Below, piece after piece: positions 1 through 57,804 of a DNA stretch of 64,000 nt (positions are counted from its first letter, which is position 1; each line of letters starts with the position of its first letter). A program made the position numbers and the translations under genes. The stretch comes from Pristionchus mayeri (lineage: Eukaryota > Nematoda > Chromadorea > Rhabditida > Neodiplogasteridae), in assembly GCA_036245805.1 (NCBI GenBank), contig BTRK01000005.1, forward strand, positions 41,403,216-41,467,215. The letters are read 5' to 3'. Under the pieces are notes generated by a model that ran no database searches, was not told the origin of the DNA, and saw only the letters and a program-made list of their open reading frames with translations.

Positions 1-110
1 AGAACACTTTGAATTAAGGCAGTAATTTCTAGGGTTCTCTTGTTGGAATTGTGTTGTATCATTTTCAGATATGTTTCATGTTCGCTATACATAGAAGCTA
101 TATGAGTGAT

Positions 111-285
111 CGGCGAGAGAGCACGCATAATGAAGAGAGTCATTCCTTGCGAAGCCATTAGAGTTCGAGAAACGATACCACGCTCTCTTCATTCTATGCA
201 CTCTCTCGCCGATCGACCGGTCTAGATAGTGTGTAGAATGAAGAGAGCGTTGTATCGTTTCTCGAACTCTAGAAGCCATCCCTAA
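111..285. repeat. Nested hairpin element (GAGAGCG family)
   Basis: Several inverted pieces built from CTCTCTTCATT, CACGCTCTCTCGCCGATC and their complements make two nested foldbacks. The start of this hairpin is where the third copy of the triplicated segment begins (8161). The same family recurs at 520-640, 25018-25112, 40108-40190 and 51660-51790. Confidence 0.7.
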
Positions 286-519
286 TTTGTAACCATTCCT
301 GATAATTGACAACAATTCGTAGAAGATGCTACATGTGATCAATACGCATACTGACCACAGTAACACGAACGTGATAATTCAATATAGGCGCATGAAGGCA
401 AACACGATTCCAGTTAGTCGGTACAACGGTGTGTTGGCCACGGATTACCTTTCATTGGTCGAAATCGGATGAAAATTGTTGTCGACGGGTATCAGACCAT
501 CCGTTTTGGTCTAACTCTC

Positions 520-640
520 GGTGCTCTGACAGTTGAGAAATCGTCTGACTCTCTTCGGTTTGCACGCTCTCTCGTCTCTGTGACCGGCGAGAGAGCGTGC
601 AAACTGAAGAGAGTCAGACCATCGCTCTGACAGTTAGAGA
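520..640. repeat. Hairpin element (GAGAGCGTGCAAACTGAAGAGAG family)
   Basis: A near-perfect foldback: GTCTGACTCTCTTC and TTTGCACGCTCTCTCG on the left are mirrored by GAGAGAGCGTGCAAAC and GAAGAGAGTCAGAC on the right around a short GGTCACAGAG-like loop. An outer CTCTGACAGTT inverted pair flanks it. It is also present in the other two copies of the segment. Confidence 0.75.
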
Positions 641-839
641 ATGCGATTTCGGGGAACCCAAATCTGTTTACATGCAGTTTGAACGAGACGACAAACATTA
701 CGATCAATTTGAATAATATGTCTTTCTCTCTCTATTTCTCTACATCTGATCGATGCTCTACCTTATCTAACAAGAGATATTATTCGAATTCGAGAGGTAG
801 ATTAGTTGAGCTGGCTAGAGATCGGTTACCATGTGCGGG

Positions 840-848
840 TATAAAATA
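840..848 (+). promoter_or_regulatory. TATA box of the secreted peptide gene
   Basis: TATAAAATA lies about 80 bases before the ATG at 927. Immediately before the ATG is TTTTCAG, a splice-acceptor consensus, so the 5' end is probably trans-spliced or joined to a short upstream leader exon. Equivalent boxes lie at 7301-7309 (minus) and 8890-8898. Confidence 0.5.
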
Positions 849-926
849 ACGAATGACATCGGCTGCTCATCATCCACTGATCTCGTCTGAATTTCGGGTG
901 ATTTCACCTCCATTCATTGTTTTCAG

Positions 927-1433
927 ATGTCAATCAAGGTCCTCTTCTTCCTTCTCTTTGTCACCGTCATCGCAGTTGATGCTGGTATTTACTCAATTCT
1001 CTTTATTTTTTGTAAATGAAAAGTGTTTTAAATGACCATTTTGAGCTTCTTACTTCGTTCCACCATGTAATGAAGTCTGCCCGAGAACCAAGGCGGAGCA
1101 CGATGAATGCTGCAGGTTTGCTCATTCATAGTTATTGCTTTCCATGACCACTGATATGTCAAAGGTATATCAAAGATAGACCAAAGGCAGGCAAGACGCC
1201 AAAGTTCTCATCCGACCTAGTGCCATACTGTGTAATGCCCACACATTAGTGACTGACCCATAGTGGTGATGAAGTTTATTTTCTTTTCGAATGCTGTGAT
1301 TGATTTTGTAAAAGACCTCAGACGATTTTCTGTTTTTATTTTGTTTATATGTACCCACTGCAGAGCCCATGGCTACCTCAGATCGGTGGATGGATTCTGT
1401 CGCTTCATGAAGGTCATGGCTTGTGAGAAGTGA
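927..1433 (+). CDS. Six-cysteine secreted mini-protein, copy 1
   Basis: Three exons, 927-984, 1046-1115 and 1364-1433, join in frame (phases 1 and 2) with GT-AG introns to give 65 residues. The first 19 residues (MSIKVLFFLLFVTVIAVDA) are a classic signal peptide. The predicted mature peptide of about 46 residues has six cysteines spaced C-x3-C-x9-CC-x12-C-x7-C, the C-C-CC-C-C order shared by inhibitor-cystine-knot (knottin) peptides. It contains HDECC and AHGYLRS before the fifth cysteine and ends MACEK. The spacing and signal peptide are read from sequence; a knottin fold, and any antimicrobial, inhibitory or signalling role, is inference. Near-identical copies sit at 6716-7222 (minus) and 8977-9483. 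I do not recognise a named family. All exons are coding-compatible, so this copy looks functional. Confidence 0.75.
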
Positions 1434-1771
1434 ACGGCTCACTGTGAAGCACCAACCCGTGAATATGGTTCTCTTATTGGAATTGTTTTTTTATCATTTT
1501 CAAATATGTTTCATGTTCGCTTTAAATAGGAGCTATATCGTGAACATGTGTGGTTTCTGTATGGTCAAATTTATGATTAATCTGTTTACATGAACGATTT
1601 GCATGTTTATGATAAATGTACATATTTGCTGCTGCATCTCTCCATTCGAACTATGCAAATCGGAATAGTTTGCATGTAATTATTTGCAAATAATGCAGTC
1701 GATATAGTAAGGCCCTTCGTAATCCGATTTCCATCCGTCATTCTCTACTCGTAGACTTGGAAAATGCATGG
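1434..1771. other. Intergenic, AT-rich
   Basis: Between the convergent 3' ends of the peptide gene and the PAN-like gene. Near 1480-1540 it repeats a phrase also found at 40-90 (ATTTTCAAATATGTTTCATG beside ATTTTCAGATATGTTTCATG), a short repeat of unknown origin. No gene seen. Confidence 0.5.
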
Positions 1772-4042
1772 CTAGACGGTTCTCCTTTTTAGTTTGGCAC
1801 CTTGGAACGAGTTGGGACACACCGGCTTATTATTTCTGCAAACATATTTCCCATCAAATTGATCTTTGTAATGGAGAGTAAACTTACGCGAAATGACCGT
1901 TTATTATAGGGAACACATATGTTATAGCAGTATCGTCGAATGTTCGGCCTTTGAAACTGCAATCTGCAAGAAAAAAATCGCAGTAATTCAGAGGATCACC
2001 CCAGGATGATAATCAAACCCCCCCCCCTAACAATAAGGCAGTTTGCATCCTACGTTTAACATCCTGGGGAACGTACTCTTATTGCTTATCATACGGAAGC
2101 AGTAATCATCCGACCTAGACACAATGGTTCTCAATATGCGGGTTTCAATTTTCAGTCAATTTTGGGAGATTTTCGGATCCGCTACAGATGCGCTTGATAT
2201 CTGCTCGTGCTCATGATCTATAGCTAGTATCTCACCCGAAAATAAGCCAAAATGACCTGAAAAGGGAATCCTCACTCAATGTTCACATTAGGGTTGCAAT
2301 TTTCAGGGGAATTTCAATAATTTTCGGATAAGTTTTAAATGTGCTGCAAAGATAAATTAAAACAGTAAAAAATTAACTGCAGCATACCTGATGTTTTCTC
2401 CAGCCCTGCTAAGAACAATGACGTGTAGTTATTAAAATTCCCACTAATCTGCCAGAACGTTCTCTATAATTTAAAGAATGTGTCAAAGTTAAACTTTTGA
2501 CGATCTCATAACCATGATCTAGCCCTGCGTAGGTCATAGCGCGAGCTAGGAGGGTAGAACACTATCTGTTGATAGCTCAGTCGTAAAGCAACCGCCATGT
2601 GATCGGATGATTCGGTTCGATTCCCGCCAAGATTCTTGACAAATCTTCGAGATATTTGAATTCCCGTGAATAGCCTGACCTATCAAGGGCTATCAGCGCT
2701 AATGACACTCTCCCAACTAATGATAACTCGGTTCAAAATATAGATGTTAATGTGAAATTTTCAGAATCTCTTATGGTTGTGCAAAGCTAGGCCATGGTTA
2801 TGACACCGCAAAAGTTCAACCTTGTCCTTTTTTAATAAGCATTCAGTAGACTCAATTATATACCTTAGATCCTAGAAGATCTAGGTACTTACTTTTTTCT
2901 GTGGACTGTAAAGGCAATTTAAAACCCACTTTTGCTTTTTTCTGACTTTTGTCAGCGCAAACAAACCAATACGATACCAACTTTCCATTACATGATGAGG
3001 AAAAGGAAAATTCAATTGTTTAAACTTTCATATGCTCGGCCTAGATCTCCCCAACGATAAGAAGTTCCGAAATTTGCACATTGATATCTCCATTACGAAC
3101 AGAGCTATCGGTAGTTGGCGGGGAGCCAAATCAGGGAAAGCTCACGCAATGAGCGAAAGAGCACGTGACTGGAAGAGAGTTCTCCTCCAATTGAAACATA
3201 CTTCAACCGGGCGCGCGTTTGGCTTTACTCCTTCTTTAAGATAACTACATGTAACATTCACCAAAGGTAAATGCGTTTTTTCGTGACTATACCACCTCAA
3301 GAACAATACCTGGGCCTGCTGAATCAGCTGAATTTTCGTCCCAGTCATGTAGGAACCATCTTTCATATGCACGTATAGATCATTTCTACCATTGCAGTAG
3401 CAGGTCTTTGTCGCATCTTCACAATGGAAATTGTTCTGCGGGTTTGTCTCAGTCTTCATTCGTTCGTAATCTGCAATTTTTTTTAGATATTTTTATATAA
3501 TTTAAATTGTGGTTCACAGTCTGGAACCGGAGTCGTCGTTAGCGCACTGGTTGACGTTGCTTCGCCAAGCTGTGGCTCGTCTAAAAAAATGCATTTTTCA
3601 TATTCGAATAATCATTTCACGTGGTGTCCGTGTATGATAAAGTTATTTTTATGCAAACCTTGACATGCCGACTTAATTCCGATCGTTTCGTCCTTGTCTG
3701 GCACAGTGCACTTCTCTGACGGTCTTTCATCTCCGAGGATAGCACATTTTGCGTTTTTGTATGAATAGGCGAGACAAGTGCTCTGCAAGGCGTTAATTCA
3801 AAACTTTTTAAAAAAATTTTTGAGTGAGCAGAGATATGAAAGTTCGGGAATTCAAATAAGTCCTCTTCTACTCTACTTTTTACACGGCATCAGTAAGGCA
3901 CTCTCCTTGCAGTATTCCAGCAATTGGCCTTGCAAGTATCCAGATCTGCAACAGTCTCAGACGCTTTGACGATTGCTCTCCGAGCATTGGTTGACGGAAT
4001 TTTTTGTTCGGTAAAGCACATTCCGAAGGTGAAGTTCGCTTG
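1772..4042 (-). pseudogene. PAN-like secreted protein gene, copy 1, missing signal-peptide exon
   Basis: Same exon series as the complete copy at 9822-12310, shifted by -8050: 4042-3911, 3782-3659, 3580-3518, 3470-3310, small linker exon(s) such as 2905-2893, then 1963-1888 and 1835-1772 (TAG stop). The exon that supplies the start codon and signal peptide in copy 3 (12310-12275) is not present here. The conserved sequence stops at 4205, where the inverted copy begins, so this copy has no recognisable promoter or start. Its coding exons show no damage, which fits recent loss. A new start could exist but I see none with a signal peptide. Confidence 0.65.
2565..2640 (+). repeat. tRNA-derived (SINE-like) sequence
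   Basis: GATAGCTCAGTCG resembles a pol III A box and GGTTCGATTCC (2614-2624) is a perfect B box about 40 bases later. No full cloverleaf can be folded, so this is a tRNA relic or SINE head rather than a tRNA gene. Copies lie in the other two segments (about 5506-5581 minus; 10615-10690). Confidence 0.45.
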
Positions 4043-4205
4043 CTGAAGGTGCAATATTTGTTCATCATTTCTTACTCTACCGCTCGAAAGTGCATAAGAA
4101 TAATAGACGATCACACGGAATCCGCACTCTAGTGACTAATGATAGTAGTCCAAGCGGAAGCGATCAAGATAACGAGAGGGAAGTAATGGTGATGTTCGAG
4201 CTAAC

Positions 4206-6376
4206 GATACTTGCAAGGCCAATTGCTGGAATACTGCAAGGAGAGTGCCTTACTGATGCCGTGTAAAAAGTAGAGTAGAAGAGGACTTATTTGAATTCCC
4301 GAACTTTCATATCTCTGCTCACTCAAAAATTTTTAAAAAAAGTTTTGAATTAACGCCTTGCAGAGCACTTGTCTCGCCTATTCATACAAAAACGCGAAAT
4401 GTGCTATCCTCGGAGATGAAAGACCGTCAGAGAAGTGCACTGTGCCAGACAAGGACGAAACGATCGGAATTAAGTCGGCATGTCAAGGTTTGCATAAAAA
4501 TAACTTTATCATACACGGACACCACGTGAAATGATTATTCGAATATGAAAAATGCATTTTTTTAGACGAGCCACAGCTTGGCGAAGCAACGTCAACCAGT
4601 GCGCTAACGACGACTCCGGTTCCAGACTGTGAACCACAATTTAAATTATATAAAAATATCTAAAAAAAATTGCAGATTACGAACGAATGAAGACTGAGAC
4701 AAACCCGCAGAACAATTTCCATTGTGAAGATGCGACAAAGACCTGCTACTGCAATGGTAGAAATGATCTATACGTGCATATGAAAGATGGTTCCTACATG
4801 ACTGGGACGAAAATTCAGCTGATTCAGCAGGCCCAGGTATTGTTCTTGAGGTGGTATAGTCACGAAAAAACGCATTTACCTTTGGTGAATGTTACATGTA
4901 GTTATCTTAAAGAAGGAGTAAAGCCAAACGCGCGCCCGGTTGAAGTATGTTTCAATTGGAGGAGAACTCTCTTCCAGTCACGTGCTCTTTCGCTCATTGC
5001 GTGAGCTTTCCCTGATTTGGCTCCCCGCCAACTACCGATAGCTCTGTTCGTAATGGAGATATCAATGTGCAAATTTCGGAACTTCTTATCGTTGGGGAGA
5101 TCTAGGCCGAGCATATGAAAGTTTAAACAATTGAATTTTCCTTTTCCTCATCATGTAATGGAAAGTTGGTATCGTATTGGTTTGTTTGCGCTGACAAAAG
5201 TCAGAAAAAAGCAAAAGTGGGTTTTAAATTGCCTTTACAGTCCACAGAAAAAAGTAAGTACCTAGATCTTCTAGGATCTAAGGTATATAATTGAGTCTAC
5301 TGAATGCTTATTAAAAAAGGACAAGGTTGAACTTTTGCGGTGTCATAACCATGGCCTAGCTTTGCACAACCATAAGAGATTCTGAAAATTTCACATTAAC
5401 ATCTATATTTTGAACCGAGTTATCATTAGTTGGGAGAGTGTCATTAGCGCTGATAGCCCTTGATAGGTCAGGCTATTCACGGGAATTCAAATATCTCGAA
5501 GATTTGTCAAGAATCTTGGCGGGAATCGAACCGAATCATCCGATCACATGGCGGTTGCTTTACGACTGAGCTATCAACAGATAGTGTTCTACCCTCCTAG
5601 CTCGCGCTATGACCTACGCAGGGCTAGATCATGGTTATGAGATCGTCAAAAGTTTAACTTTGACACATTCTTTAAATTATAGAGAACGTTCTGGCAGATT
5701 AGTGGGAATTTTAATAACTACACGTCATTGTTCTTAGCAGGGCTGGAGAAAACATCAGGTATGCTGCAGTTAATTTTTTACTGTTTTAATTTATCTTTGC
5801 AGCACATTTAAAACTTATCCGAAAATTATTGAAATTCCCCTGAAAATTGCAACCCTAATGTGAACATTGAGTGAGGATTCCCTTTTCAGGTCATTTTGGC
5901 TTATTTTCGGGTGAGACACTAGCTATAGATCATGAGCACGAGCAGATATCAAGCGCATCTGTAGCGGATCCGAAAATCTCCCAAAATTGACTGAAAATTG
6001 AAACCCGCATATTGAGAACCATTGTGTCTAGGTCGGATGATTACTGCTTCCGTATGATAAGCAATAAGAGTACGTTCCCCAGGATGTTAAACGTAGGATG
6101 CAAACTGCCTTATTGTTAGGGGGGCGGGGGTTTGATTATCATCCTGGGGTGATCCTCTGAATTACTGCGATTTTTTTCTTGCAGATTGCAGTTTCAAAGG
6201 CCGAACATTCGACGATACTGCTATAACATATGTGTTCCCTATAATAAACGGTCATTTCGCGTAAGTTTACTCTCCATTACAAAGATCAATTTGATGGGAA
6301 ATATGTTTGCAGAAATAATAAGCCGGTGTGTCCCAACTCGTTCCAAGGTGCCAAACTAAAAAGGAGAACCGTCTAG
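4206..6376 (+). pseudogene. PAN-like secreted protein gene, copy 2, 5'-truncated
   Basis: It begins inside exon 2 at the codons for DTCKANCWNT (4206-4235), followed by a GC-AG intron (GCAAGG donor) and the exon encoding CLAYSYKNAKC. The long exon 4687-4847, a 13-base candidate microexon 5241-5253, another candidate microexon 5741-5758, and the final exons 6185-6260 and 6313-6376 (TAG at 6374-6376) are all present. The first exon and most of exon 2 are missing at the inversion joint, so this copy and copy 1 stand head-to-head as broken genes. Confidence 0.65.
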
Positions 6377-6715
6377 CCATGCATTTTCCAAGTCTACGAG
6401 TAGAGAATGACGGATGGAAATCGGATTACGGAGGGCCTTACTATATCGACTGCATTATTTGCAAATAATTACATGCAAACTATTCCGATTTGCATAGTTC
6501 GAATGGAGAGATGCAGCAGCAAATATGTACATTTATCATAAACATGCAAATCGTTCATGTAAACAGATTAATCATAAATTTGACCATACAGAAACCACAC
6601 ATGTTCACGATATAGCTCCTATTTAAAGCGAACATGAAACATATTTGAAAATGATAAAAAAAACAATTCCAATAAGAGAACCATATTCACGGGTTGGTGC
6701 TTCACAGTGAGCCGT

Positions 6716-7222
6716 TCACTTCTCACAAGCCATGACCTTCATGAAGCGACAGAATCCATCCACCGATCTGAGGTAGCCATGGGCTCTGCAGTGGGTACAT
6801 ATAAACAAAATAAAAACAGAAAATCGTCTGAGGTCTTTTACAAAATCAATCACAGCATTCGAAAAGAAAATAAACTTCATCACCACTATGGGTCAGTCAC
6901 TAATGTGTGGGCATTACACAGTATGGCACTAGGTCGGATGAGAACTTTGGCGTCTTGCCTGCCTTTGGTCTATCTTTGATATACCTTTGACATATCAGTG
7001 GTCATGGAAAGCAATAACTATGAATGAGCAAACCTGCAGCATTCATCGTGCTCCGCCTTGGTTCTCGGGCAGACTTCATTACATGGTGGAACGAAGTAAG
7101 AAGCTCAAAATGGTCATTTAAAACACTTTTCATTTACAAAAAATAAAGAGAATTGAGTAAATACCAGCATCAACTGCGATGACGGTGACAAAGAGAAGGA
7201 AGAAGAGGACCTTGATTGACAT
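6716..7222 (-). CDS. Six-cysteine secreted mini-protein, copy 2 (inverted)
   Basis: Exact structural counterpart of 927-1433 on the opposite strand: exons 7222-7165, 7103-7034 and 6785-6716. All splice sites, the signal peptide, the six cysteines and the TGA stop are preserved, and the TATA box lies at 7309-7301. The gene sits wholly within the repeat arm, so unlike the neighbouring PAN-like gene it is not cut. Dosage of this peptide is therefore potentially tripled in the haplotype shown. Confidence 0.72.
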
Positions 7223-8158
7223 CTGAAAACAATGAATGGAGGTGAAATCACCCGAAATTCAGACGAGATCAGTGGATGATGAGCAGCCGATGTCATTCGT
7301 TATTTTATACCCGCACATGGTAACCGATCTCTAGCCAGCTCAACTAATCTACCTCTCGAATTCGAATAATATCTCTTGTTAGATAAGGTAGAGCATCGAT
7401 CAGATGTAGAGAAATAGAGAGAGAAAGACATATTATTCAAATTGATCGTAATGTTTGTCGTCTCGTTCAAACTGCATGTAAACAGATTTGGGTTCCCCGA
7501 AATCGCATTCTCTAACTGTCAGAGCGATGGTCTGACTCTCTTCAGTTTGCACGCTCTCTCGCCGGTCACAGAGACGAGAGAGCGTGCAAACCGAAGAGAG
7601 TCAGACGATTTCTCAACTGTCAGAGCACCGAGAGTTAGACCAAAACGGATGGTCTGATACCCGTCGACAACAATTTTCATCCGATTTCGACCAATGAAAG
7701 GTAATCCGTGGCCAACACACCGTTGTACCGACTAACTGGAATCGTGTTTGCCTTCATGCGCCTATATTGAATTATCACGTTCGTGTTACTGTGGTCAGTA
7801 TGCGTATTGATCACATGTAGCATCTTCTACGAATTGTTGTCAATTATCAGGAATGGTTACAAATTAGGGATGGCTTCTAGAGTTCGAGAAACGATACAAC
7901 GCTCTCTTCATTCTACACACTATCTAGACCGGTCGATCGGCGAGAGAGTGCATAGAATGAAGAGAGCGTGGTATCGTTTCTCGAACTCTAATGGCTTCGC
8001 AAGGAATGACTCTCTTCATTATGCGTGCTCTCTCGCCGATCACTCCTATAGCTTCTATGTATAGCGAACATGAAACATATCTGAAAATGATACAACACAA
8101 TTCCAACAAGAGAACCCTAGAAATTACTGCCTTAATTCAGTGTTCTGGTGTCCGTATG

Positions 8159-11100
8159 ATCGGCGAGAGAGCACGCATAATGAAGAGAGTCATTCCTTGC
8201 GAAGCCATTAGAGTTCGAGAAACGATACCACGCTCTCTTCATTCTATGCACTCTCTCGCCGATCGACCGGTCTAGATAGTGTGTAGAATGAAGAGAGCGT
8301 TGTATCGTTTCTCGAACTCTAGAAGCCATCCCTAATTTGTAACCATTCCTGATAATTGACAACAATTCGTAGAAGATGCTACATGTGATCAATACGCATA
8401 CTGACCACAGTAACACGAACGTGATAATTCAATATAGGCGCATGAAGGCAAACACGATTCCAGTTAGTCGGTACAACGGTGTGTTGGCCACGGATTACCT
8501 TTCATTGGTCGAAATCGGATGAAAATTGTTGTCGACGGGTATCAGACCATCCGTTTTGGTCTAACTCTCGGTGTTCTGACAGTTGAGAAATCGTCTGACT
8601 CTCTTCGGTTTGCACGCTCTCTCGTCTCTGTGACCGGCGAGAGAGCGTGCAAACTGAAGAGAGTCAGACCATCGCTCTGACAGTTAGAGAATGCGATTTC
8701 GGGGAACCCAAATCTGTTTACATGCAGTTTGAACGAGACGACAAACATTACGATCAGTTTGAATAATATGTCTTTCTCTCTCTATTTCTCTACATCTGAT
8801 CGATGCTCTACCTTATCTAACAAGAGATATTATTCGAATTCGAGAGGTAGATTAGTTGAGCTGGCTAGAGATCGGTTACCATGTGCGGGTATAAAATAAC
8901 GAATGACATCGGCTGCTCATCATCCACTGATCTCGTCTGAATTTCGGGTGATTTCACCTCCATTCATTGTTTTCAGATGTCAATCAAGGTCCTCTTCTTC
9001 CTTCTCTTTGTCACCGTCATCGCAGTTGATGCTGGTATTTACTCAATTCTCTTTATTTTTTGTAAATGAAAAGTGTTTTAAATGACCATTTTGAGCTTCT
9101 TACTTCGTTCCACCATGTAATGAAGTCTGCCCGAGAACCAAGGCGGAGCACGATGAATGCTGCAGGTTTGCTCATTCATAGTTATTGCTTTCCATGACCA
9201 CTGATATGTCAAAGGTATATCAAAGATAGACCAAAGGCAGGCAAGACGCCAAAGTTCTCATCCGACCTAGTGCCATACTGTGTAATGCCCACACATTAGT
9301 GACTGACCCATAGTGGTGATGAAGTTTATTTTCTTTTCGAATGCTGTGATTGATTTTGTAAAAGACCTCAGACGATTTTCTGTTTTTATTTTGTTTATAT
9401 GTACCCACTGCAGAGCCCATGGCTACCTCAGATCGGTGGATGGATTCTGTCGCTTCATGAAGGTCATGGCTTGTGAGAAGTGAACGGCTCACTGTGAAGC
9501 ACCAACCCGTGAATATGGTTCTCTTATTGGAATTGTTTTTTTATCATTTTCAAATATGTTTCATGTTCGCTTTAAATAGGAGCTATATCGTGAACATGTG
9601 TGGTTTCTGTATGGTCAAATTTATGATTAATCTGTTTACATGAACGATTTGCATGTTTATGATAAATGTACATATTTGCTGCTGCATCTCTCCATTCGAA
9701 CTATGCAAATCGGAATAGTTTGCATGTAATTATTTGCAAATAATGCAGTCGATATAGTAAGGCCCTTCGTAATCCGATTTCCATCCGTCATTCTCTACTC
9801 GTAGACTTGGAAAATGCATGGCTAGACGGTTCTCCTTTTTAGTTTGGCACCTTGGAACGAGTTGGGACACACCGGCTTATTATTTCTGCAAACATATTTC
9901 CCATCAAATTGATCTTTGTAATGGAGAGTAAACTTACGCGAAATGACCGTTTATTATAGGGAACACATATGTTATAGCAGTATCGTCGAATGTTCGGCCT
10001 TTGAAACTGCAATCTGCAAGAAAAAAATCGCAGTAATTCAGAGGATCACCCCAGGATGATAATCAAACCCCCCCCCCTAACAATAAGGCAGTTTGCATCC
10101 TACGTTTAACATCCTGGGGAACGTACTCTTATTGCTTATCATACGGAAGCAGTAATCATCCGACCTAGACACAATGGTTCTCAATATGCGGGTTTCAATT
10201 TTCAGTCAATTTTGGGAGATTTTCGGATCCGCTACAGATGCGCTTGATATCTGCTCGTGCTCATGATCTATAGCTAGTATCTCACCCGAAAATAAGCCAA
10301 AATGACCTGAAAAGGGAATCCTCACTCAATGTTCACATTAGGGTTGCAATTTTCAGGGGAATTTCAATAATTTTCGGATAAGTTTTAAATGTGCTGCAAA
10401 GATAAATTAAAACAGTAAAAAATTAACTGCAGCATACCTGATGTTTTCTCCAGCCCTGCTAAGAACAATGACGTGTAGTTATTAAAATTCCCACTAATCT
10501 GCCAGAACGTTCTCTATAATTTAAAGAATGTGTCAAAGTTAAACTTTTGACGATCTCATAACCATGATCTAGCCCTGCGTAGGTCATAGCGCGAGCTAGG
10601 AGGGTAGAACACTATCTGTTGATAGCTCAGTCGTAAAGCAACCGCCATGTGATCGGATGATTCGGTTCGATTCCCGCCAAGATTCTTGACAAATCTTCGA
10701 GATATTTGAATTCCCGTGAATAGCCTGACCTATCAAGGGCTATCAGCGCTAATGACACTCTCCCAACTAATGATAACTCGGTTCAAAATATAGATGTTAA
10801 TGTGAAATTTTCAGAATCTCTTATGGTTGTGCAAAGCTAGGCCATGGTTATGACACCGCAAAAGTTCAACCTTGTCCTTTTTTAATAAGCATTCAGTAGA
10901 CTCAATTATATACCTTAGATCCTAGAAGATCTAGGTACTTACTTTTTTCTGTGGACTGTAAAGGCAATTTAAAACCCACTTTTGCTTTTTTCTGACTTTT
11001 GTCAGCGCAAACAAACCAATACGATACCAACTTTCCATTACATGATGAGGAAAAGGAAAATTCAATTGTTTAAACTTTCATATGCTCGGCCTAGATCTCC

Positions 11101-12255
11101 CCAACGATAAGAAGTTCCGAAATTTGCACATTGATATCTCCATTACGAACAGAGCTATCGGTAGTTGGCGGGGAGCCAAATCAGGGAAAGCTCACGCAAT
11201 GAGCGAAAGAGCACGTGACTGGAAGAGAGTTCTCCTCCAATTGAAACATACTTCAACCGGGCGCGCGTTTGGCTTTACTCCTTCTTTAAGATAACTACAT
11301 GTAACATTCACCAAAGGTAAATGCGTTTTTTCGTGACTATACCACCTCAAGAACAATACCTGGGCCTGCTGAATCAGCTGAATTTTCGTCCCAGTCATGT
11401 AGGAACCATCTTTCATATGCACGTATAGATCATTTCTACCATTGCAGTAGCAGGTCTTTGTCGCATCTTCACAATGGAAATTGTTCTGCGGGTTTGTCTC
11501 AGTCTTCATTCGTTCGTAATCTGCAATTTTTTTTAGATATTTTTATATAATTTAAATTGTGGTTCACAGTCTGGAACCGGAGTCGTCGTTAGCGCACTGG
11601 TTGACGTTGCTTCGCCAAGCTGTGGCTCGTCTAAAAAAATGCATTTTTCATATTCGAATAATCATTTCACGTGGTGTCCGTGTATGATAAAGTTATTTTT
11701 ATGCAAACCTTGACATGCCGACTTAATTCCGATCGTTTCGTCCTTGTCTGGCACAGTGCACTTCTCTGACGGTCTTTCATCTCCGAGGATAGCACATTTT
11801 GCGTTTTTGTATGAATAGGCGAGACAAGTGCTCTGCAAGGCGTTAATTCAAAACTTTTTAAAAAAATTTTTGAGTGAGCAGAGATATGAAAGTTCGGGAA
11901 TTCAAATAAGTCCTCTTCTACTCTACTTTTTACACGGCATCAGTAAGGCACTCTCCTTGCAGTATTCCAGCAATTGGCCTTGCAAGTATCCAGATCTGCA
12001 ACAGTCTCAGACGCTTTGACGATTGCTCTCCGAGCATTGGTTGACGGAATTTTTTGTTCGGTAAAGCACATTCCGAAGGTGAAGTTCGCTTGCTGAAGGT
12101 GCAATATTTGTTCATCATTTCTTACTCTACCGCTCGAAAGTGCATAAGAATAATAGACGATCACACGGAATCCGCACTCTAGTGACTAATGATAGTAGTC
12201 CAAGCGGAAGCGATCAAGATAACGAGAGGGAAGTAATGGTGATGTTCGAGCTAAC
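8159..12255 (+). repeat. Triplicated segment, copy 3 (direct)
   Basis: Matches 109-4205 at a constant +8050 offset. Between the end of copy 2 and its start lie about ten bases (GGTGTCCGTAT) with no obvious source. Identity ends exactly after CTAAC at 12255, the base at which copy 1 turns into the inverted copy. Beyond it, the native flank continues with the first exon of the PAN-like gene, so copy 3 appears to keep the ancestral junction. Confidence 0.95.
8977..9483 (+). CDS. Six-cysteine secreted mini-protein, copy 3
   Basis: Exons 8977-9034, 9096-9165 and 9414-9483, identical in coding sequence to 927-1433 as far as I can see. It encodes the same 65-residue precursor: 19-residue signal peptide and a C-x3-C-x9-CC-x12-C-x7-C mature domain. 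The TATA box is at 8890-8898. It is convergent with the only complete PAN-like gene (9822-12310). Confidence 0.74.
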
Positions 12256-12310
12256 TAAACATATAGTAACTTACGCTCAATATGAGGAGTAGTACGGTGG
12301 AAGTCCACAT
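9822..12310 (-). CDS. PAN-like secreted protein, complete copy
   Basis: Exons (minus): 12310-12275 (MWTSTVLLLILS, signal peptide, donor GTAAGT), 12092-11961, 11832-11709, 11630-11568, 11520-11360, one or two linker microexons (10955-10943 is 13 bases and restores phase), 10013-9938 and 9885-9822 (TAG). Exon 2 ends with a GC donor (GCAAGG). The first domain has MCFTEQKIPSTN, then TCKANCWNT and CLAYSYKNAKCAIL, the cysteine and aromatic pattern of PAN/apple-like domains in nematode secreted proteins. A Thr/Ser-rich linker follows, then HCEDATKTCYCNG, and a third module CSFKGRTFDD...YVFPIINGHF near the C-terminus. PAN modules usually bind proteins or carbohydrates; the ligand is unknown. Phases agree at every junction except the uncertain microexon step. 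A diverged relative lies at 28521-30127. Confidence 0.68.
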
Positions 12311-12850
12311 CCTTCCACTGAGGTGGATGGGATAGCTGTCAGCGCCTTGACTTCCCGGCTTCCAGAGAGCAAGGAAACCACGTATAAATCACATTTTTCC
12401 ACAGTCGTAAACGCACTTGATAAATGTTTCGGAGAAGCGAGAGGAAAATGCAAGTTTTGGCCGCAACTGTATAGCAGCATCCAAATTAGTAGTTGATCCA
12501 AATTTGACTTTACACAAATCTACAGCGAAAGTGTAAAGCTGCAGCCACAGCACGCCATATGCAAGTATGAAATAAAATTTAAAAAAATGTGAAGCTCTCC
12601 GTTCACGATCAGCTCAATTGTTTCCACACTGAAATGTTCATGGGCAATGCAATTCGGCGCTCAATCTATGTTATTGACTGATGTAGGCCTGAAACGAAAT
12701 TTTGCGCTGTCTTAACATCGCCGCGAGCAAAAAAGATCTAAATCCCCTCCCAATAAGTCTGGATAAATTTCTGAAGCATTATTGATCCTGCCTTCATTGT
12801 GCATGATGTAAAGCAGTGGCTAGAATTGATGAAGATAACCATTTTGCAAA
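12311..12850. other. Upstream region of the PAN-like gene; no gene recognised
   Basis: Presumed promoter region for the minus-strand gene starting at 12310. A 74-codon open frame overlaps on the minus strand (12501-12277), but it runs through the signal-peptide exon in another frame and looks accidental. No repeat recognised. Confidence 0.4.
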
Positions 12851-13115
12851 TAAAGGTAAAAGGTAAAGGTGTTAAGCATTATTACACGCAAGGGCGGTCT
12901 CTGCCACCCCATCGTCTATTAGCAACTAGGTCCTATCCTGAAAACCAGTGGCCTGTTGCGAGACTTCAAACCGCCCGTGTTGTGTGCACGTGGTTGGGGA
13001 TTTCCTTATAGTGATTTTTGAATCACTACCAACATTTCTTAACCCCCTTGGTCTGGGTGGATCTGTGGACGCGGGCGGGAGTCGAACTCATGACCCTTCG
13101 ATCGCAAGTCGCAAG
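12850..13115 (-). repeat. Probable tRNA-derived SINE
   Basis: One end carries (AAAGGT)-like runs (12853-12870). The other, read on the minus strand, has GAGTTCGACTCCCGCC, a pol III B box, preceded by GGCGCGGCGACTTG, an A-box-like sequence. Composition (GGGCGGTCTCTGCCACCCC) differs from the AT-rich surroundings. It is a SINE by structure only; no second copy is in the window. Confidence 0.35.
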
Positions 13116-13402
13116 TCGCCGCGCCAAATGTCAATCGCTTTACTATCGTTGTTTATACGAGGACATATGTTAACTTTACGTTAATGCCCCAATTCAAAGA
13201 ATGTCCTAAATACGATTGTGCTGACAAAATGTAAGGCATTGCATTTTACGGTTTTTTAATGGACTCATGATACGTTTGTTGTCCATTAGGATAATCCATT
13301 AAAGGAAATATGAGTAATTGAAGGAGTATGGTATTAAACTTAATGATGAAGGTGATCTTTAAAATGTCAGACGCATTATATCCCTAGTTCTCTGGAAAAT
13401 CA

Positions 13403-13636
13403 TTAGCAATGTTCGTGAATGAACTCAATTTCATCGAAAATATGAGTGCGCGCAGGTGTTCTTGGCATGAATACGCATGGCATTTCTGAGCATTTATCTT
13501 CACAGTACAAATATCCGCTATTATACCACCTTTTTACAATCATAACGTCCCCTTGAAGCACTTCGGACAACTGGAAGGATTCATAGTCCAAGCATGCGTA
13601 TCTTGACGACTGTAAAATTGCTTGGCATTTCTGCAC
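13403..13636 (-). CDS. Possible cysteine-containing exon, unidentified
   Basis: An open stretch of 77 codons ending HEHC before a stop, with an acceptor-like TTTTACAG just before SSRYACLDYESF. It contains five cysteines in a WYNSGYLYCEDKCSEMPC-like region. I do not recognise it. It is head-to-head with the chemoreceptor gene at 13669 and could be the last exon of a lost gene or chance. Confidence 0.2.
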   Translation of the reverse strand: MQKCQAILQSSRYACLDYESFQLSEVLQGDVMIVKRWYNSGYLYCEDKCSEMPCVFMPRTPARTHIFDEIEFIHEHC

Positions 13637-13668
13637 TTTTACCTTGCTTTAACTTTCAACAATCAACA

Positions 13669-16600
13669 ATGACGGAGCTCCCGCTATGGATCCACCAGGT
13701 TTGAATCTAATTAAACTGATCACTTTCAAACGTGTGCTCCTTCTCCCTCTCTCATTCGGTCAGAAGAGCGTTTGAAATGAAGATACGGTAATCTGAAACT
13801 ATTGAAAAAAACAAGAAATTTTTCAGATTTTCCTGTACTCCTTTGCCGTCTGCTCAATCACTTGGAACTCCTTTCTCATCTTCCTCGTAGTTCAGCCTTC
13901 GAATCGCAATTTAGGCAACTATCGGGTGCTATTGTGCACTTTCGAGGCTGTCGATATGGCGATATCCCTCTATCATGCACTGATAGTGCCGGTAAGGGTA
14001 TCTAAGTCTCTTATTTTAAACTTGCACACTATATCATCGTTTTGGCGAGATAAAACAAGTAACGTGTATAATTCTCGGTGGAAAATCTACTAATAATATG
14101 AATGAAGAAACAATGTATTAGGCTGTCCAGAAAGTAACGCTCCATTTGAAACATGAAGTTTGAGCTCGCATACAATCCTTTTCTTTAAAGATTTCAAGCT
14201 ATCTCAATAGCATGTATTAGGAGTTTACTTGGGCAATATATGCATGTGTTCCAATGGTATCATGTATTTTGGATATCCCTAAAATCCAAGTTTTATCAAA
14301 AGTGATATTTTCACACTTGTCTTAAAATATTTTCTGCTTCTCATATTTTGAGGGGGGAAATAGCTGTAAAATCTCATATAGCGGAATAAGAAGGCCGTTG
14401 GTAGTTCTCTCCAAAAATAGGTCTAAGGTCATTCCTACCTCGACATAACTCGAGTAAAACACCGTTGGATTCAACTCTTACCGAGGAAAGACGTATCAAG
14501 CGATTACGTTTCCTGCTTCGAGATTCATCCAGACTGGTTTCTAAATGAGGGCACCTCCATGATATACTATGTTGCTACATATCGCAGAGAAACATTTAAA
14601 CTCATGCCTTTTCTACTCTTAGGGAACATAGATTATCAGTAGTGTTGAATAACTGCCAATATTGCCAAAATTTCGACTTTTGGTGTTCGGAGAATGAATA
14701 AATTTCCTCAAAAGGGAGCTATCCCCTGACAGTCCTGCCGACTACGGATAGATAAAGAGTTGCTTTAACAATTTTCGAAAAAAAGTTAGGACTTGTCATC
14801 AATGCTGGAAACAGGAAGTTTTGAAATATTCGAGTTTCGATGTTCAAATTTCGTTGTTGTGTTGATGAATGTTGCACATTTTGCTGGAAGTGTTGTATGT
14901 TCATAGAAATACAATTTTAAGTTAAAGAAGGTGTAACACGAATACGAGATGAGAAGGTAATGCATTCTGATGAGCGTGTTGGGTAGATATAATGTTTCAC
15001 CTCGGCCCGGACCAACGGTGATTATAGCGCAGTGGGTAACTCATGCGCGCCAAGCGCAATCTACGTGGGTTCGAATCCGGCTATGAGCACTAGTTGTTGC
15101 TGTTTTTCTCATTCATTTCAAATGCGCGCGCTTCGCCTGCGCTGAGGCCCGATCTTCTCATTCTCATATCTCGTGATAGACTCTTCTGTGTCACTTCGGA
15201 TAAAGTGATTTCTCATCGGATTTTTGTCCTCTACGACAACCACTATTCCACATGTACAATCTATTTTTCGTGTTACTCCTTCTTTAAACGTAGAAAGTAC
15301 GTTTCGTTTTACTACATTTTTGATCGATATTGTGTCGGAAACTCGGTAAAAACAAGTATTTCTGTTGATGTTCAGGTAGGGTGAAGTTCACAAATGAGTT
15401 TATTTTCTAACAATCCTTTTACAGCAAACTATATTCACATGTTGACCTGTAATATCCGTATGCAGTACTTTTCGCATGTGACATAATATTTGCCTTATCA
15501 AAGCTATACATGGAATGCTGGGCCGTAATCAGAAAAAAAAACAACATGGAAACGTAATCAGTTCAACCCTTCGTAGGTGTACATTTGACTTCATCCTGTG
15601 GCCTCAATACCAATTGGACAGGTTTGAACCAATGCACGATAGAAAGAGTATCAATGCATTCAACGAACATATCCATACCTATATATAAAGCGCTGTGTGC
15701 GTCTGTCCGTCTGTCCGTCTGTCCGGATTGCGAAATAGGGAGGGGAGGGATGGATGATCTTAGCAGGGAATCGGACCACTACCGTATACCAATCAATAAT
15801 TAACATTGGGTCAACTACCGTATGCCAATCGATAATTAGCCATGGGTCACCTATTATTCCGCGAGTCAGATTCATGATTTTGATCTTTGATCTTTTAATT
15901 ACCGTATGCCAATCAATAATTAGCATTGAGTCAACTACCGTATGCCAATCGATAATTAGCCATGGGCCACCTATTATTCCGGGGGTCAGATTTATGATTT
16001 TGATCTTTGATCTTTCAATTACCGTATGCCAATCAATAATTAGCATTGGGTCAACTACCGTATACCAATCGACAATTAGCCATGGGCCACCTATTATTCC
16101 GGGGGTCAGATTTATGATTTTGATCTTTGATCTTTCAATTACCGTATGCAAATCAATATTTAGCATTGGGTCAACTACCGTATGCCAATCGATAATTAGC
16201 CATGGGCCACCTATTATTCCGTGGGTCAGATTTATGATTTTGGTCTTTGATCTTTCAATTACCGTATGCCAATCAATAATTAGCATTGGGTACCTACAGT
16301 ACACCAATCGATAATTAGCCATGGGTCACTTATTATTCCGCGGGTCAGATTTATGATTTTGATCTTTGATCTTTCAATTACCGTATGCCAATCAATAATT
16401 AGCATTGAGTCAACTACAGTATGCCAATCGATAATTAGCCATGGGCCACCTATTATTCCGTGGGTCATATTCATGATTTTCCCTCACCCTATGGAGTTTC
16501 GAAAGTTTTCGCAAGCCTCCCCCCAACCTGAGGAGTTTCGAAAGTTTTCGAAAGTCCCCTATATAAGGAGAGCTCAGATCAGAACTACAACTCAATTGTC

Positions 16601-19600
16601 TACAAGCAACCATGCACCCGTCCACTTCGCGCACCGACCAACCGCCCATCGACCCTCCGCCTGAACCTTCGCCCTCTACATCGACATCACAGGGGCCAAT
16701 CGCAGGGTGGACTCGCTCGCGGACGAGGTGAGTGATTTTAGAATATTAGGTGAATTCTTTTGAAATACTTTCGAAATTCTGTAAAGTTCTTGAACTTTCT
16801 ATGGTCATGCATTGACTCTCTTCATTCTGCGTGCACTCTCCCCGGTCAGAAAACGAGCATTTACTGTAATCTAACCATATACCGACTAATGAATATTTAG
16901 AAACATCGCCGATGCGGAAAGAAAACGGGTCTCACGTGCAAGCGAAACTCCACAGGAAAAAGACACGAGACTCGCTGCTGATCGAGAGAGACATAGACGG
17001 AGGAGAGCATCGATGAATCAAGAGGAGAGAGAAGAGTTCAGAGACGAGGATAGACAACGGAAGAGGATCAGTAGGAAAGACGAAGAAGATGATGATCGAG
17101 AAGAGAGAAGGAAGGAAGATCGAGAGAGGAAGAGGGAGAGGATGACTGAAGAGGACGAGGAAGTTAGTGAGCGGAGGAGGTCTGAGGATCGAGAGAGGAA
17201 GAGGGAGAGGAGGATTGAAGAGGACGAGGAATTGAGTGAGCGGAGGAGGTCTGGAGATCGAGAGAGGAAGAGGGAGAGGAGGATTGATGAGGACGAGCAA
17301 GACAGTGAAAGAAGGAGGGCCGATAACCGAGATAGGATGATAGTTAGGAGAAATGAGGAGAGGGAAAGACAGGCGACCGAGCCGAACTATCTCGGCGCAA
17401 TGGATATCACGTGCAGCCACTGCGGCGCCCGCTTCTTCACAGGTATGCCAAGTTAAATATTACCGTAATTCCATTTGGCCGCATTACCTTTCGTCGGTCA
17501 GAAAAAGCGAGATAGTGAAGATGGAGAGAGCGTTACATAAATTGATCAGAAACTCCAGAACATTCCAAAAGGGCTATGAAAAGGTTGTCTCCGTTATGCA
17601 TGCTATCTCGCCAATCGAGATAAAAATGAAAACGTGTGTAAATTAGATACCGACAACAGTCATATCCCGTTATTCTACCGTAACCTCTCTGCAGGAGAAG
17701 TGAGCGGCAGTACAGATAAAATCAATCTGTGCTATAATTTTGGGTTGGCGACCACAATTGAGGACAAGTTCGCTGATTTTCCGGCTGAAATCCGCTCTCT
17801 CCTCCTCGACGATTCCTCAGATGCCAAGAATTTCCAGAAGTTCATTCGGCAGTTTAACTCTGCCCTCTCAATGGCATCCATGGGCGCACAACTCGATATC
17901 CCGAGAGGGCGCGGCCCATACTGCTTCCGTATTCACGGGCAGGTGTGCCATCTGGCCGGTCCCCTCCATCCAGAACCTGGCCAAAGACCATCTTACGGTC
18001 AGATCTACATTCTGGATACCGCCCAAGCAGCCAGCGAGAGACTGGGCAATCCTGCCAATGTGAACTGTGATCCTCAAGTGATGGCCGATCTCAGCAGCCT
18101 GATCTCGAGGGTCAATCCCTTTGCCCAAGCATACCAAATGCTGGCTGAGGTGGAGGAGAAAGAGGAGAGAGATGCAGCCGAAGAAGGCCGACCTGCCGCC
18201 CCCGTCCGAATGATCTTTGATCCCACTACGTCAAAGGATCCCCGTAGGTACAACGTGCCTCAAACAAACGAAGTGGCCGTTGTCTACGTGGGTGAAGACG
18301 ATGATGTACCCGCCACTCGATCTCTGGCAGTACATCCCCGAGGGGGAGGACTCACAACGATTCGGGATATCGACAAGATCTGCGATCCCCTCACATATCC
18401 CGTGTTCTTCCCCACGCGAAAGGACGGGTGGCACCCAGGACTGGCGAAGAAGCCATCGGACAGGAAGAGGACTCGCATCACTCAGAAGGAGTATTACAGC
18501 TACCTACTGATGGTGCGGGAAGGGAAATTCAACCCCATCCACCATGGAAAAGCCCTCTTCCAGCAGTTCGCTGTTGACTCCTGGGTCAAGGTGAGTACTT
18601 CGTCGCATGGAATTCACTTTACAACCTCTATAATTTTGACTTTCCATGAATTTTAGATCGAACAGAATCGACTCAACTATTTCCGCTCCAATCAAAACCA
18701 GCTTCGGAGCGCCTCCTACAGGGCTGTACAGGTGACAAAAATTAAAATATTTTTCAAAAAAGAATTTAATTGAGTTCTCGGTGTCATGCTTTGATATTTC
18801 AGGACTACCTTGCCGGAGATTCAGATGTTCCGGGAAAGAGGACCATCCTCCCTTCGACTCATCCGGGTAGTCCTCGAGCCATGACCCAGGATTTCCAAGA
18901 CGCAATGGCGATCGTCTCCAAGTACGGCAAGCCGGATATCTTCTTTACCTTCACGTGCAACCCTGCGTGGAAGGAGATCACTGAGAATCTCGAACCCGGT
19001 CAGACTGCCTCTGATCGACCTGATCTCATCGCAAGGGTCTTCAAACTAAAGGTTAGTTCAATGTTCGCTGCTTCTTCTCAATTGACTATCCTAATTTGCG
19101 TGTCTCAGGTCGACAGAGTGTTCGATGATCTGTTCCATCGTAACAAGCTCGGTCGCGTCGTAGCCTACATCGCAGTGTTCGAGTGGCAGAAGAGAGGCCT
19201 CCCTCATGTTCACATTCTACTCATCATGAGTGAGGACACTAAGCCGCGCACTCCCGAGGACGTCGACAGGTTAGTCCAAGCGGAGATCCCGAACCCCGAG
19301 ACGGATCCCGAGCTGTACCACATCGTCACCACGAACATGCTCCATCGACCTTGCGGTGTACTCAATCCAGATTCACCCTGTATGAGAGATGGGCAATGCT
19401 CCAAACACTTCCCCAAAGAGTTCCGGGACAGTACAAATCTCGACGTCGACGGATACCCCCAGTACCGTAGGAGGGATGACGGGAGGGTCGTCGAGTACGG
19501 AGGACACAATCTCGACAACCGGCACATTGTGCCCTACAATGTTTACTTCCTGCTGATGTACAATGCGCATGCCAACGTCGAAATCTGCGCTTTCATCGAA

Positions 19601-23988: not shown

Positions 23989-24655
23989 CAGATGATGTTG
24001 TATTTTATATTGTATTATTTGATAAATTGGAAACGTGCAAATCGCGAGTTGTGTATAATAGGCGCTTGAATGCACCTCTCCCACTGATCCCCGAGGAATG
24101 TATCAAGACCCGATTACATCGATTAGAACGAAGATAATGTGCGATGATTATCGAGCTACAGTTACAGCAAAACGCAAATACAATAGGGTGAATAAAGGCT
24201 ATAATTGGCAATCGGGCCCTCACATTCTGATAATTTATTCTTTTGAAGTTATTCAAAAAAAAACTTATCGTGCGTCAAAAAAAAACCACATGGTCACTTA
24301 CCACATGGTGAACTTGATTGTTTATCATGATTTATGTGAATATTTAGGAATTAATGATCAACATCAGTGATGAAGCGAGTAGGTGATAGGAAGAGTTGCT
24401 TTTTGTGCTAATCCGGACTATAATCTCACAATCTATATAATCTATAATGTCAGCACAGCTTTCAACAGCAGAGCAATAAACACAGATAAGGAAGCCATTT
24501 CCACGTATTTTATAGTTTGTGTTACCATTGTTAATACGCCCTTCTAGCTATCGCCGTGATACTTTTCTGTACATTTACATTATTCGTTGCCCATGGCTCT
24601 TTAGCATTCTACAGGGTAGTCAAGCGCTCGTTATTCATGCAATTTGTTTTCTCGG
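23989..24655. other. Intergenic, no gene recognised
   Basis: AT-rich 3' flank of the chemoreceptor gene, including GAATAAAGG (24190) and a short ACATGGT inverted pair near 24290. No convincing coding exon or repeat. Confidence 0.4.
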
Positions 24656-24745
24656 GCACTAGGTCGCACGAGAACTGTGACGTCATTCCGTGACGTCAAG
24701 ATATGAAAGGTGACAGGATGTCACATTTCTCATCCGAGCTAGTGC
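24656..24745. mobile_element. CRE-core palindromic MITE
   Basis: GCACTAGGTCGCACGAGAAC is mirrored by CTCATCCGAGCTAGTGC, with three GACGTCA cores inside. A partial further copy (24785-24880) carries TAGGTCGGACGAGAACTG and two ATGACGTCAT sites. Both are just upstream of the lectin gene starting at 24903. Confidence 0.75.
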
Positions 24746-24902
24746 TGCTTTGTCGCAACTCGCCCTTCCGAAAAATAACTGCCACTTGGGCAGTAGGTCG
24801 GACGAGAACTGCATCATATCGTCTTTGATAGATCACAGGCGCCATGACGTCATTGTTTTGATAAATGACGTCATCGCATACAACCTAATGCAACCATTTC
24901 AG

Positions 24903-26266: not shown

Positions 26267-26472
26267 GTAAGTCGACACAACGTCGAATGAGACTCGTACT
26301 GCATTTACCGCGTTAGATATATCATAGGCGGAATGACGCCATAGTTCGCAGTGACCGTAAGTCTCAGTTTACTTATCAAGAGTCTTTTCCAAGGAGCCCG
26401 AGTGAAACACAATGGAGGGTATTGAATCAAATTCTTAAAAAAAACGATATACGGACATACTAACACAAATTA

Positions 26473-57675: not shown

Positions 57676-57677
57676 TA

Positions 57678-57717
57678 CCAGCCGATTGCGCGCGCCACGG
57701 CGCGCGCAATCGACTGG
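57678..57717 (-). other. Helitron 3'-terminal hairpin
   Basis: CCAGCCGATTGCGCGCGCC-AC-GGCGCGCGCAATCGACTGG (plus strand): a 19-bp stem with one mismatch or wobble. It is longer and more regular than the equivalent at 22152-22179. Confidence 0.75.
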
Positions 57718-57804
57718 CGTGCGCCGGGTCGTTTTCTTAGTTGGCTAGCTTTCAAGTGTCCCCATAGGTTTCTCAACTCATCGATTTATTCTTTCGCAAT
57801 TTAT

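What the first reader, a model, noticed from the sequence alone, without database searches (positions are those of the whole stretch)
1..12255. Direct-inverted-direct triplication of a 4-kb gene pair, breakpoints resolved to the base
Copy 1 (1-4205) turns into its own reverse complement at 4205/4206 and back into direct orientation at about 8159, at a constant +8050 offset. The copies differ by only a handful of substitutions. Copy 3 alone keeps the native flank beyond 12255. This matches a template-switch product (DUP-TRP/INV-DUP-like) or a very recent palindromic amplification. A long-read hairpin chimera would look similar, but scattered substitutions and the asymmetric 265-base loop argue against a pure artefact.
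Basis: seen in the sequence. Interest (0 to 1): 0.8.

Follow-up and report, generated by a model that had tools for sequence, protein, structure and literature searches.

The report
Inverted triplication of an antimicrobial-peptide gene
In what looks like a Pristionchus-type roundworm genome, a 4-kb stretch carrying an antimicrobial-peptide gene exists as forward, backward and forward copies, most likely made when a broken chromosome end folded back and copied itself; this kind of rearrangement is known, but it is rarely caught this intact.

Summary
The direct-inverted-direct structure is confirmed. A 3.84-kb unit (Y) is present three times: 107-3940 (+), 4206-8042 (-), 8157-11990 (+). The return joint is at 8039-8042, not about 8159. 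A 114-bp spacer (X) and a 265-bp spacer (Z) are each present twice, giving the 1-2-3-2-1 copy numbers of DUP-TRP/INV-DUP. But X in copy 1 is inverted and, just outside the window, is joined through a templated filler to a 5'-truncated Helitron. Two single-copy paralogues on the same chromosome gave the ancestral order and polarised the differences. Copy 2 keeps the ancestral state at three places where copies 1 and 3 share a derived one, which a hairpin-read artefact does not predict. The X joint has 3 bp of microhomology and lies 6 bp inside the end of a transposon still present in both paralogues; the Z joint is blunt. All three copies keep the same intact diapausin gene; a neighbouring, weakly PAN-like gene is apparently cut in copies 1 and 2, so this is not a triplicated gene pair. 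Best reading: a real, recent germline inverted triplication made by fold-back or template-switch repair at a transposon end. Read-level proof is missing and a scaffold gap lies 9.35 kb to the left.

The parts
1..109 (-). X': inverted copy of the 114-bp spacer X at the left end of copy 1 (continues to -4, i.e. C5:41403211)
   Evidence: -4..109 matches paralogue B 14317..14430 in the orientation opposite to the rest of copy 1
107..3940 (+). copy 1, segment Y
3941..4205 (+). spacer Z, copy 1 (loop between copies 1 and 2)
   Evidence: absent from copy 2, present in copy 3 at 11991-12255
4205..4206 (.). joint J_Z, blunt (0 bp microhomology); falls inside a predicted exon of the PAN-like gene
   Evidence: sequences on both sides; reading frame
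4206..8042 (-). copy 2, segment Y' (inverted)
8039..8042 (.). joint b, microhomology TCA; the X side ends 6 bp (GAGTGA) inside the terminal inverted repeat of a TE present at this place in paralogues B and C
8043..8156 (+). spacer X, native to copy 3 (loop between copies 2 and 3)
   Evidence: collinear with paralogue B
8157..11990 (+). copy 3, segment Y
11991..12255 (+). spacer Z, copy 3
12256..26654 (+). native right flank, collinear with paralogues B and C apart from the insertions at 14927-15283 and 15672-22179; homology ends at 26654
927..1433 (+). diapausin gene, copy 1 (exons 927-984, 1046-1115, 1364-1433; 65 aa, hand-predicted)
   Evidence: PF08036 E 1.7e-10, 41.3 bits against a cut-off of 25; model
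6716..7222 (-). diapausin gene, copy 2, same coding sequence
8977..9483 (+). diapausin gene, copy 3, same coding sequence
3142..4205 (-). PAN-like gene, copy 1, cut at its upstream side by the 4205/4206 joint (limits approximate)
   Evidence: weak PF08277 match, 16.9 bits, below the cut-off of 21.1; frame
4206..5004 (+). PAN-like gene, copy 2, begins in mid-exon at the joint (limits approximate)
11192..12255 (-). PAN-like gene, copy 3, the only copy whose native upstream side continues (limits approximate; its first exon was not identified)
8158..8321 (.). nested hairpin-forming inverted repeats beside joint b (8158-8189/8233-8264 and 8209-8256/8274-8321)

Best explanation
This is a real, recent germline rearrangement: an inverted triplication with two surviving palindromic junctions. 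Proposed course: (1) Locus A was a duplicate of a segment that also lies at 42.45 Mb and 4.46 Mb of the same chromosome, with a transposon with long inverted repeats next to X. (2) A break arose at, or 6 bp inside, that transposon's end. The exposed end folded back across the 114-bp X, annealed by the 3-bp TCA, and copied Y into an inverted arm. (3) A second fold-back, or an end joining between two such arms, 265 bp apart at Z, gave another inverted arm that carries the same b-joint. (4) The left end of this array was sealed, with a templated filler, to a broken inverted Helitron. Shown here: the order, the joints, the transposon end, the filler and the polarised variants. Inferred: the break, the fold-back priming, the order of steps and the enzyme (polymerase theta-like). 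Consequence: three identical intact diapausin genes at one locus, and two cut copies of the neighbouring gene.
For: Structure and paralogues. Joint b with TCA microhomology, and J_Z blunt. The X edge lies 6 bp into a TE whose ends read GAGTGACTATCTGA...TCAGATAGTCACTC between ATAT repeats in paralogue C; the 4 other genomic copies compared show the same terminus with different flanks. The filler at -24/-4 contains an 11-nt and a 9-nt copy of the adjacent Helitron sequence; 4 of 2000 random window 22-mers reached 11 nt. Helitron H' has its own canonical 3' end and flank but is truncated where a family copy at C5:45.73 Mb continues. Copy 2 carries the B/C state where copies 1 and 3 share a derived one at 3 of 3 such places (1717, 3750, 3810-3811). 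A 1138-bp piece of the paralogues' native left flank is matched in full only at B and C, 2 of 41 rows, all 40 candidates scored.
Against: No reads or coverage could be examined, and a 500-N gap lies 9.35 kb left of the window. Copies 1 and 2 share joint b and should be closest relatives, yet over Y copy 1 matches copy 3 better (2 substitutions, no gaps in 3834, against 5 substitutions and 3 gap positions to copy 2); this needs later gene conversion between the direct copies, or copy 2 templated from another haplotype. Copy 2's three private differences are two indels in homopolymer runs and one substitution, so some may be consensus errors.
Confidence: 0.55

Rival explanations
1. Library or assembly artefact: hairpin or chimeric reads near a contig end were assembled into a false palindromic array.
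For: A scaffold gap lies 9.35 kb to the left and the identity is very high; palindromic chimeras are a known error class (general knowledge).
Against: A copied hairpin should be identical apart from errors, and errors would not be expected to restore ancestral bases; copy 2 has the state seen in both paralogues at three places where copies 1 and 3 agree on another. The spacers are 114 and 265 bp with 3-bp and 0-bp joints, one edge falls at a TE end and another has a templated filler. A missed-adapter read would give a spacer of zero (general knowledge).
Confidence: 0.17
2. ODIRA: replication forks switched strands at short inverted repeats, a hairpin-capped extrachromosomal molecule formed and reintegrated as a perfect inverted triplication, and its palindromic centres were later eroded into the asymmetric X and Z spacers.
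For: PMC10766186 (section 3 whole and parts 1-2 of 3 of section 4 read) describes this end state: 1-2-3-2-1 copy number and, after erosion, joints with little or no microhomology. The erosion step would also excuse the spacer lengths.
Against: No inverted repeat of 4 bp or more within about 12 bp of the two Z edges; at the X edges only the 3-bp TGA/TCA pair of the native order (the longer pairs that one search lists there are just the rearranged arms). The spacers of 114 and 265 bp exceed the 40-80 bp reported for yeast. The inverted X with a repeated b-joint on the left is not predicted without a further step (inference). No replication origin could be tested.
Confidence: 0.22
3. Breakage-fusion-bridge: a fold-back at b, then sister fusion at Z, then a bridge break at the X loop that was healed onto the Helitron fragment. 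(This overlaps with step 3 of the best explanation, so the odds given need not add up to one.)
For: Explains the shared b-joint in copies 1 and 2, and the left edge lying only 6 bp from the X/Y stem-loop boundary (B 14317 against 14311).
Against: Predicts copies 1 and 2 closest, which is not seen; bridge logic is unclear in holocentric nematode chromosomes (general knowledge).
Confidence: 0.15
4. The inverted Helitron at left and the one at right are arms of one larger palindrome that later lost 8.6 kb.
For: The two match at 99.9% over 5.4 kb in the collinear inverted order.
Against: The left Helitron ends exactly at its 3' terminus and has its own flank, and its 3' hairpin is longer than that of the right copy, so it looks like a separate insertion.
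Confidence: 0.05

Closest known systems
DUP-TRP/INV-DUP rearrangements (human PLP1 and MECP2 loci), as tabulated in PMC10766186
   Same: Copy numbers 1-2-3-2-1, inverted middle copy, a joint of 0-4 bp in most tabulated cases
   Different: The tabulated cases usually have their other joint in a repeat (RE, LCR or IR), with DUP segments of a few kb to thousands of kb; here the DUP segments are 114 and 265 bp, the left one (X) is inverted and edged by a filler joint, and both palindromic arms are still almost whole
ODIRA inverted triplications at yeast SUL1 (PMC10766186)
   Same: Interstitial triplication with an inverted centre and interrupted palindromic junctions
   Different: Longer spacers, no short inverted repeat found at the Z edges, origin untested
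Small inverted triplications of FEN1/rad27 mutants (PMC13334657, abstract and outline only)
   Same: DUP/INV/DUP order
   Different: Those average 148/160/148 bp with 30-bp spacers; the inverted copy here is about 24 times longer
Pristionchus diapausins (PF08036; PMC3175473, PMC10506718, PMC11180206, passages only)
   Same: Hydrophobic leader plus a six-cysteine mature peptide, small multi-copy family
   Different: Five copies with the same 198-bp coding sequence, spread by segmental duplication and inverted triplication

Membership tests
DUP-TRP/INV-DUP | Central segment in three copies, the middle one inverted | tested here: met
   Y at 107-3940, 4206-8042 (inverted) and 8157-11990
DUP-TRP/INV-DUP | Flanking segments on both sides in two copies | tested here: met
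   X twice and Z twice, judged against single-copy paralogues B and C
DUP-TRP/INV-DUP | Both duplicated flanks in native orientation and joined to native flanking sequence | tested here: not met
DUP-TRP/INV-DUP | Breakpoint joints with little or no microhomology, or in inverted repeats | tested here: met
   3 bp (TCA) and 0 bp
ODIRA product | Joints at pre-existing short (5-6 bp) inverted repeats 40-80 bp apart | tested here: not met
   X edges: 3 bp with a spacer of about 114 bp; Z edges: no inverted repeat of 4 bp or more near the edges, spacer 265 bp. Later erosion could have removed them
ODIRA product | Replication origin inside the amplicon | not testable with these tools
   No origin map at hand for this species
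Diapausin (PF08036) | Pfam score above the curated cut-off | tested here: met
   41.3 bits against 25, E 1.7e-10
Diapausin (PF08036) | Six-cysteine motif | tested here: met
   Six cysteines after the leader in the 65-aa model; splice sites predicted by hand, no transcript data
Diapausin (PF08036) | Antifungal or calcium-channel activity | not testable with these tools
   Function stated for the family in PMC3175473 (passages)

The most novel reading that the evidence does not exclude
The array records a transposon-end break that was repaired by repeated fold-back synthesis in a holocentric germline. It left two nearly intact long palindromic junctions that have persisted long enough for direct copies 1 and 3 to be homogenised, and it raised the dosage of an antimicrobial peptide thought to have been acquired horizontally. 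That would make it a natural test case for how inverted triplications form and why their palindromes normally erode.
Probability: 0.25. Interest if true: 0.65.

Novelty: new variant of a known kind. Interest (0 to 1): 0.45.

Why it matters
Inverted triplications are proposed to be the unstable precursors of many inverted copy-number variants, and intact palindromic junctions are rarely recovered (PMC10766186: none unambiguously intact in its limited human survey). A germline example with both junctions readable, ancestral single-copy references on the same chromosome and polarised mutations would allow the order of events to be tested. It would also show one route by which a small immune-peptide family can gain copies quickly.

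Tried and rejected
Giant-palindrome idea (left and right Helitrons as arms): dropped because the left Helitron ends exactly at its own 3' terminus with a different flank. Gene-pair triplication: dropped because the PAN-like gene is apparently cut. Helitron terminus at 16787: dropped because a family copy continues past it. Lost native left flank elsewhere in the assembly: of 41 rows, 2 cover it in full (B and C) and 39 are short repeat matches; an earlier query over the transposon beside it found B and C plus many repeat copies. The sequence left of H' was found in full only at its own place; the other 132 of 133 rows are partial repeat matches. Protein homologue search with two diapausin models found no candidates, so it gave no species name. 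Species: called Pristionchus-like from Rfam mir-8364 matches and the diapausin; the one paper listed for mir-8364 is on P. pacificus (listing only). No absolute age is given, because no mutation rate was found in the passages seen. Literature: 'inverted triplication' with 'nematode' gave 0 papers (one library, those two terms only); none of the 10 papers listed by a broad diapausin and copy-number search mentions diapausins.
Full report
What is there. The window lies at C5:41403216-41467215 of a 290.8-Mb, 73-contig genome. Self-comparison confirms three copies of a 3.84-kb segment Y: 107-3940 (+), 4206-8042 (-) and 8157-11990 (+). A 265-bp segment Z follows Y in copies 1 and 3 and is missing from copy 2. 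A 114-bp segment X precedes Y in copy 3. Coordinates below 1 mean bases left of the window (0 = C5:41403215).

The single-copy references. Two relatives of the segment lie on the same chromosome: B at about 42.45 Mb and C at about 4.46 Mb. Each has X-Y-Z-W once; C has about 1.25 kb extra inside Y. B and C match each other beyond both edges of locus A, so A is probably the shortened or derived copy: its homology runs from X to 26654. Substitutions over Y: c1-B 37/3829, c1-C 49/3823, B-C 56/3833; c1-c3 2/3834, c1-c2 5/3834, c2-c3 7/3834. The three copies are thus roughly 5 to 19 times closer to each other than to B. Gene conversion could make them look younger than they are.

The joints. J_Z (4205/4206): GAGCTAAC|GATACTTG, with no base shared with either native continuation. 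Joint b (8039-8042): Y' reaches GATCA and continues as X from TCACTC, 3 bp shared (TCA). The X side of b is the reverse complement of ...GCTATAT-GAGTGA. In B and C this is followed by CTATCTGA..., the end of a transposon with long inverted repeats (about 2.4 kb in C; about 3 kb in B, where another 0.6-kb repeat sits inside it). In C its ends read GAGTGACTATCTGA and TCAGATAGTCACTC between ATAT repeats, and the 4 other genomic copies compared show the same terminus with different flanks. So b lies 6 bp inside a TE end (3 of the 6 are also in the microhomology). Nested hairpin repeats lie beside it. Left joint: X' (-4..109) is inverted relative to the rest of copy 1, carries the same joint b, ends 6 bp from the X/Y boundary, and is joined to a Helitron through about 20 bp of filler that repeats the neighbouring Helitron sequence (11 nt and 9 nt; 4 of 2000 random window 22-mers reach 11). 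Such fillers are typical of polymerase-theta end joining (general knowledge).

The left Helitron. H (15672-22179) has the marks of a complete Helitron: 5' TC, 3' CTGG, inserted between A and T, with empty sites in B and C. H', left of the window, matches H inverted at 99.9% over 5.39 kb, with one or two substitutions and a few short indels. It ends at its own 3' terminus with a different flank and a fuller 3' hairpin, but its 5' side stops at the equivalent of 16787, where another family copy continues. I first read H'/H as arms of one giant palindrome and dropped that.

Polarised differences. Copy 3 alone is derived at 524 and 707 (copy 1 numbering). Copy 2 alone has +T at 1485, +CG at 2021 and A to G at 2229. 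At 1717, 3750 and 3810-3811 copies 1 and 3 share a derived state while copy 2 has the state of both B and C. The X beside copy 3 has two changes against B and X'. Copy 1 has no private change in Y. Copies 1 and 2 share joint b, so they should be sisters; the shared derived states of 1 and 3 therefore ask for gene conversion between the direct copies, or another haplotype as template for copy 2. This counts against a simple one-pass model, and more strongly against a hairpin-read artefact.

Artefact question. Against an artefact: the polarised sites, two different non-zero spacers, the TE-end position and the templated filler. For it: a 500-N gap at -9851..-9352, high identity, and no reads. 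I put the artefact at 0.17.

Genes. Y carries a diapausin: exons 927-984, 1046-1115, 1364-1433, 65 aa, PF08036 41.3 bits against a cut-off of 25. The coding sequence is identical in all three copies, B and C. Among A, B and C, 0 of 198 coding columns vary against 72 of 3620 other gap-free columns of Y (3.9 expected, chance about 0.02), in line with purifying selection. The family search of the genome, at E up to 10, gave 20 rows, 7 over the cut-off alone and one more with its neighbour; 5 of the 20 rows are these five genes; in the 14 control genomes it rang in 1, over the cut-off in 0. The second gene, on the other strand, is weakly PAN-like (16.9 bits, below the cut-off of 21.1). The 4205/4206 joint falls inside one of its predicted exons, so copies 1 and 2 should be cut; its first exon was not identified. 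Diapausins in nematodes occur mainly in Diplogasteroidea (PMC10506718, passages), have been proposed to come from insects (PMC3175473, passages), and five of eight annotated P. pacificus diapausins rise about 4- to 8200-fold on grub carcasses (PMC11180206, passages). With Rfam mir-8364 matches this suggests a Pristionchus-like worm; the species is not established.

Mechanism and comparison. Brewer and colleagues (PMC10766186; section 3 and parts 1-2 of 3 of section 4 read) argue that inverted CNVs start as inverted triplications with palindromic junctions that erode by end joining, recombination or break-induced replication, and report no unambiguously intact palindromic arms in their limited human survey. 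This locus looks like such a structure caught early, but two ODIRA marks are not met: spacer length, and short inverted repeats at the Z edges. Its left X is inverted, which canonical DUP-TRP/INV-DUP lacks. The best fit is fold-back synthesis from a break at the TE end, a second fold-back or fusion at Z, and sealing of the left edge to a broken Helitron. Only the joints and the order are shown; the steps are inferred.

Noticed in passing
15672-22179: Helitron with canonical 5' TC and 3' CTGG ends, Helitron_like_N and PIF1 domains and repeats of about 120 bp near its 5' end; empty sites in both paralogues give its exact insertion point.
   Followed up: yes
57676-62543: Another Helitron of the same family in inverted orientation, about 89% identical.
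   Followed up: no
14927-15283: 357-bp insertion absent from paralogues B and C, with terminal inverted repeats and TTAA at the edges; looks like a small non-autonomous DNA transposon.
   Followed up: partly
550-610, 7539-7599, 8600-8660, 25034-25096: Rfam mir-8364 matches (5 rows); at 25034-25096 both strands match, so this 'microRNA' family may be a hairpin transposon. The genome-wide count could not be obtained.
   Followed up: partly
X at 8043-8156, compared with paralogue C (L014): X and the sequence beyond the TE in C look by eye like the two halves of a hairpin repeat, so the TE seems to have inserted near the loop of a hairpin element.
   Followed up: partly
46554-47919: 1.37-kb self-inverted repeat (92.9%), probably a fold-back transposon.
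   Followed up: no
37022-39986: Non-LTR retrotransposon frames: endonuclease (PF03372) and reverse transcriptase (PF00078).
   Followed up: no
C5:42442001-42472000 (L011, L012, L051) and C5:4445001-4475000 (L049, L013, L014): Segmental duplicates B and C, 38 Mb apart on one chromosome; the five main aligned pieces span some 20 kb, four at 98.3-98.6% identity and one at 95%.
   Followed up: partly
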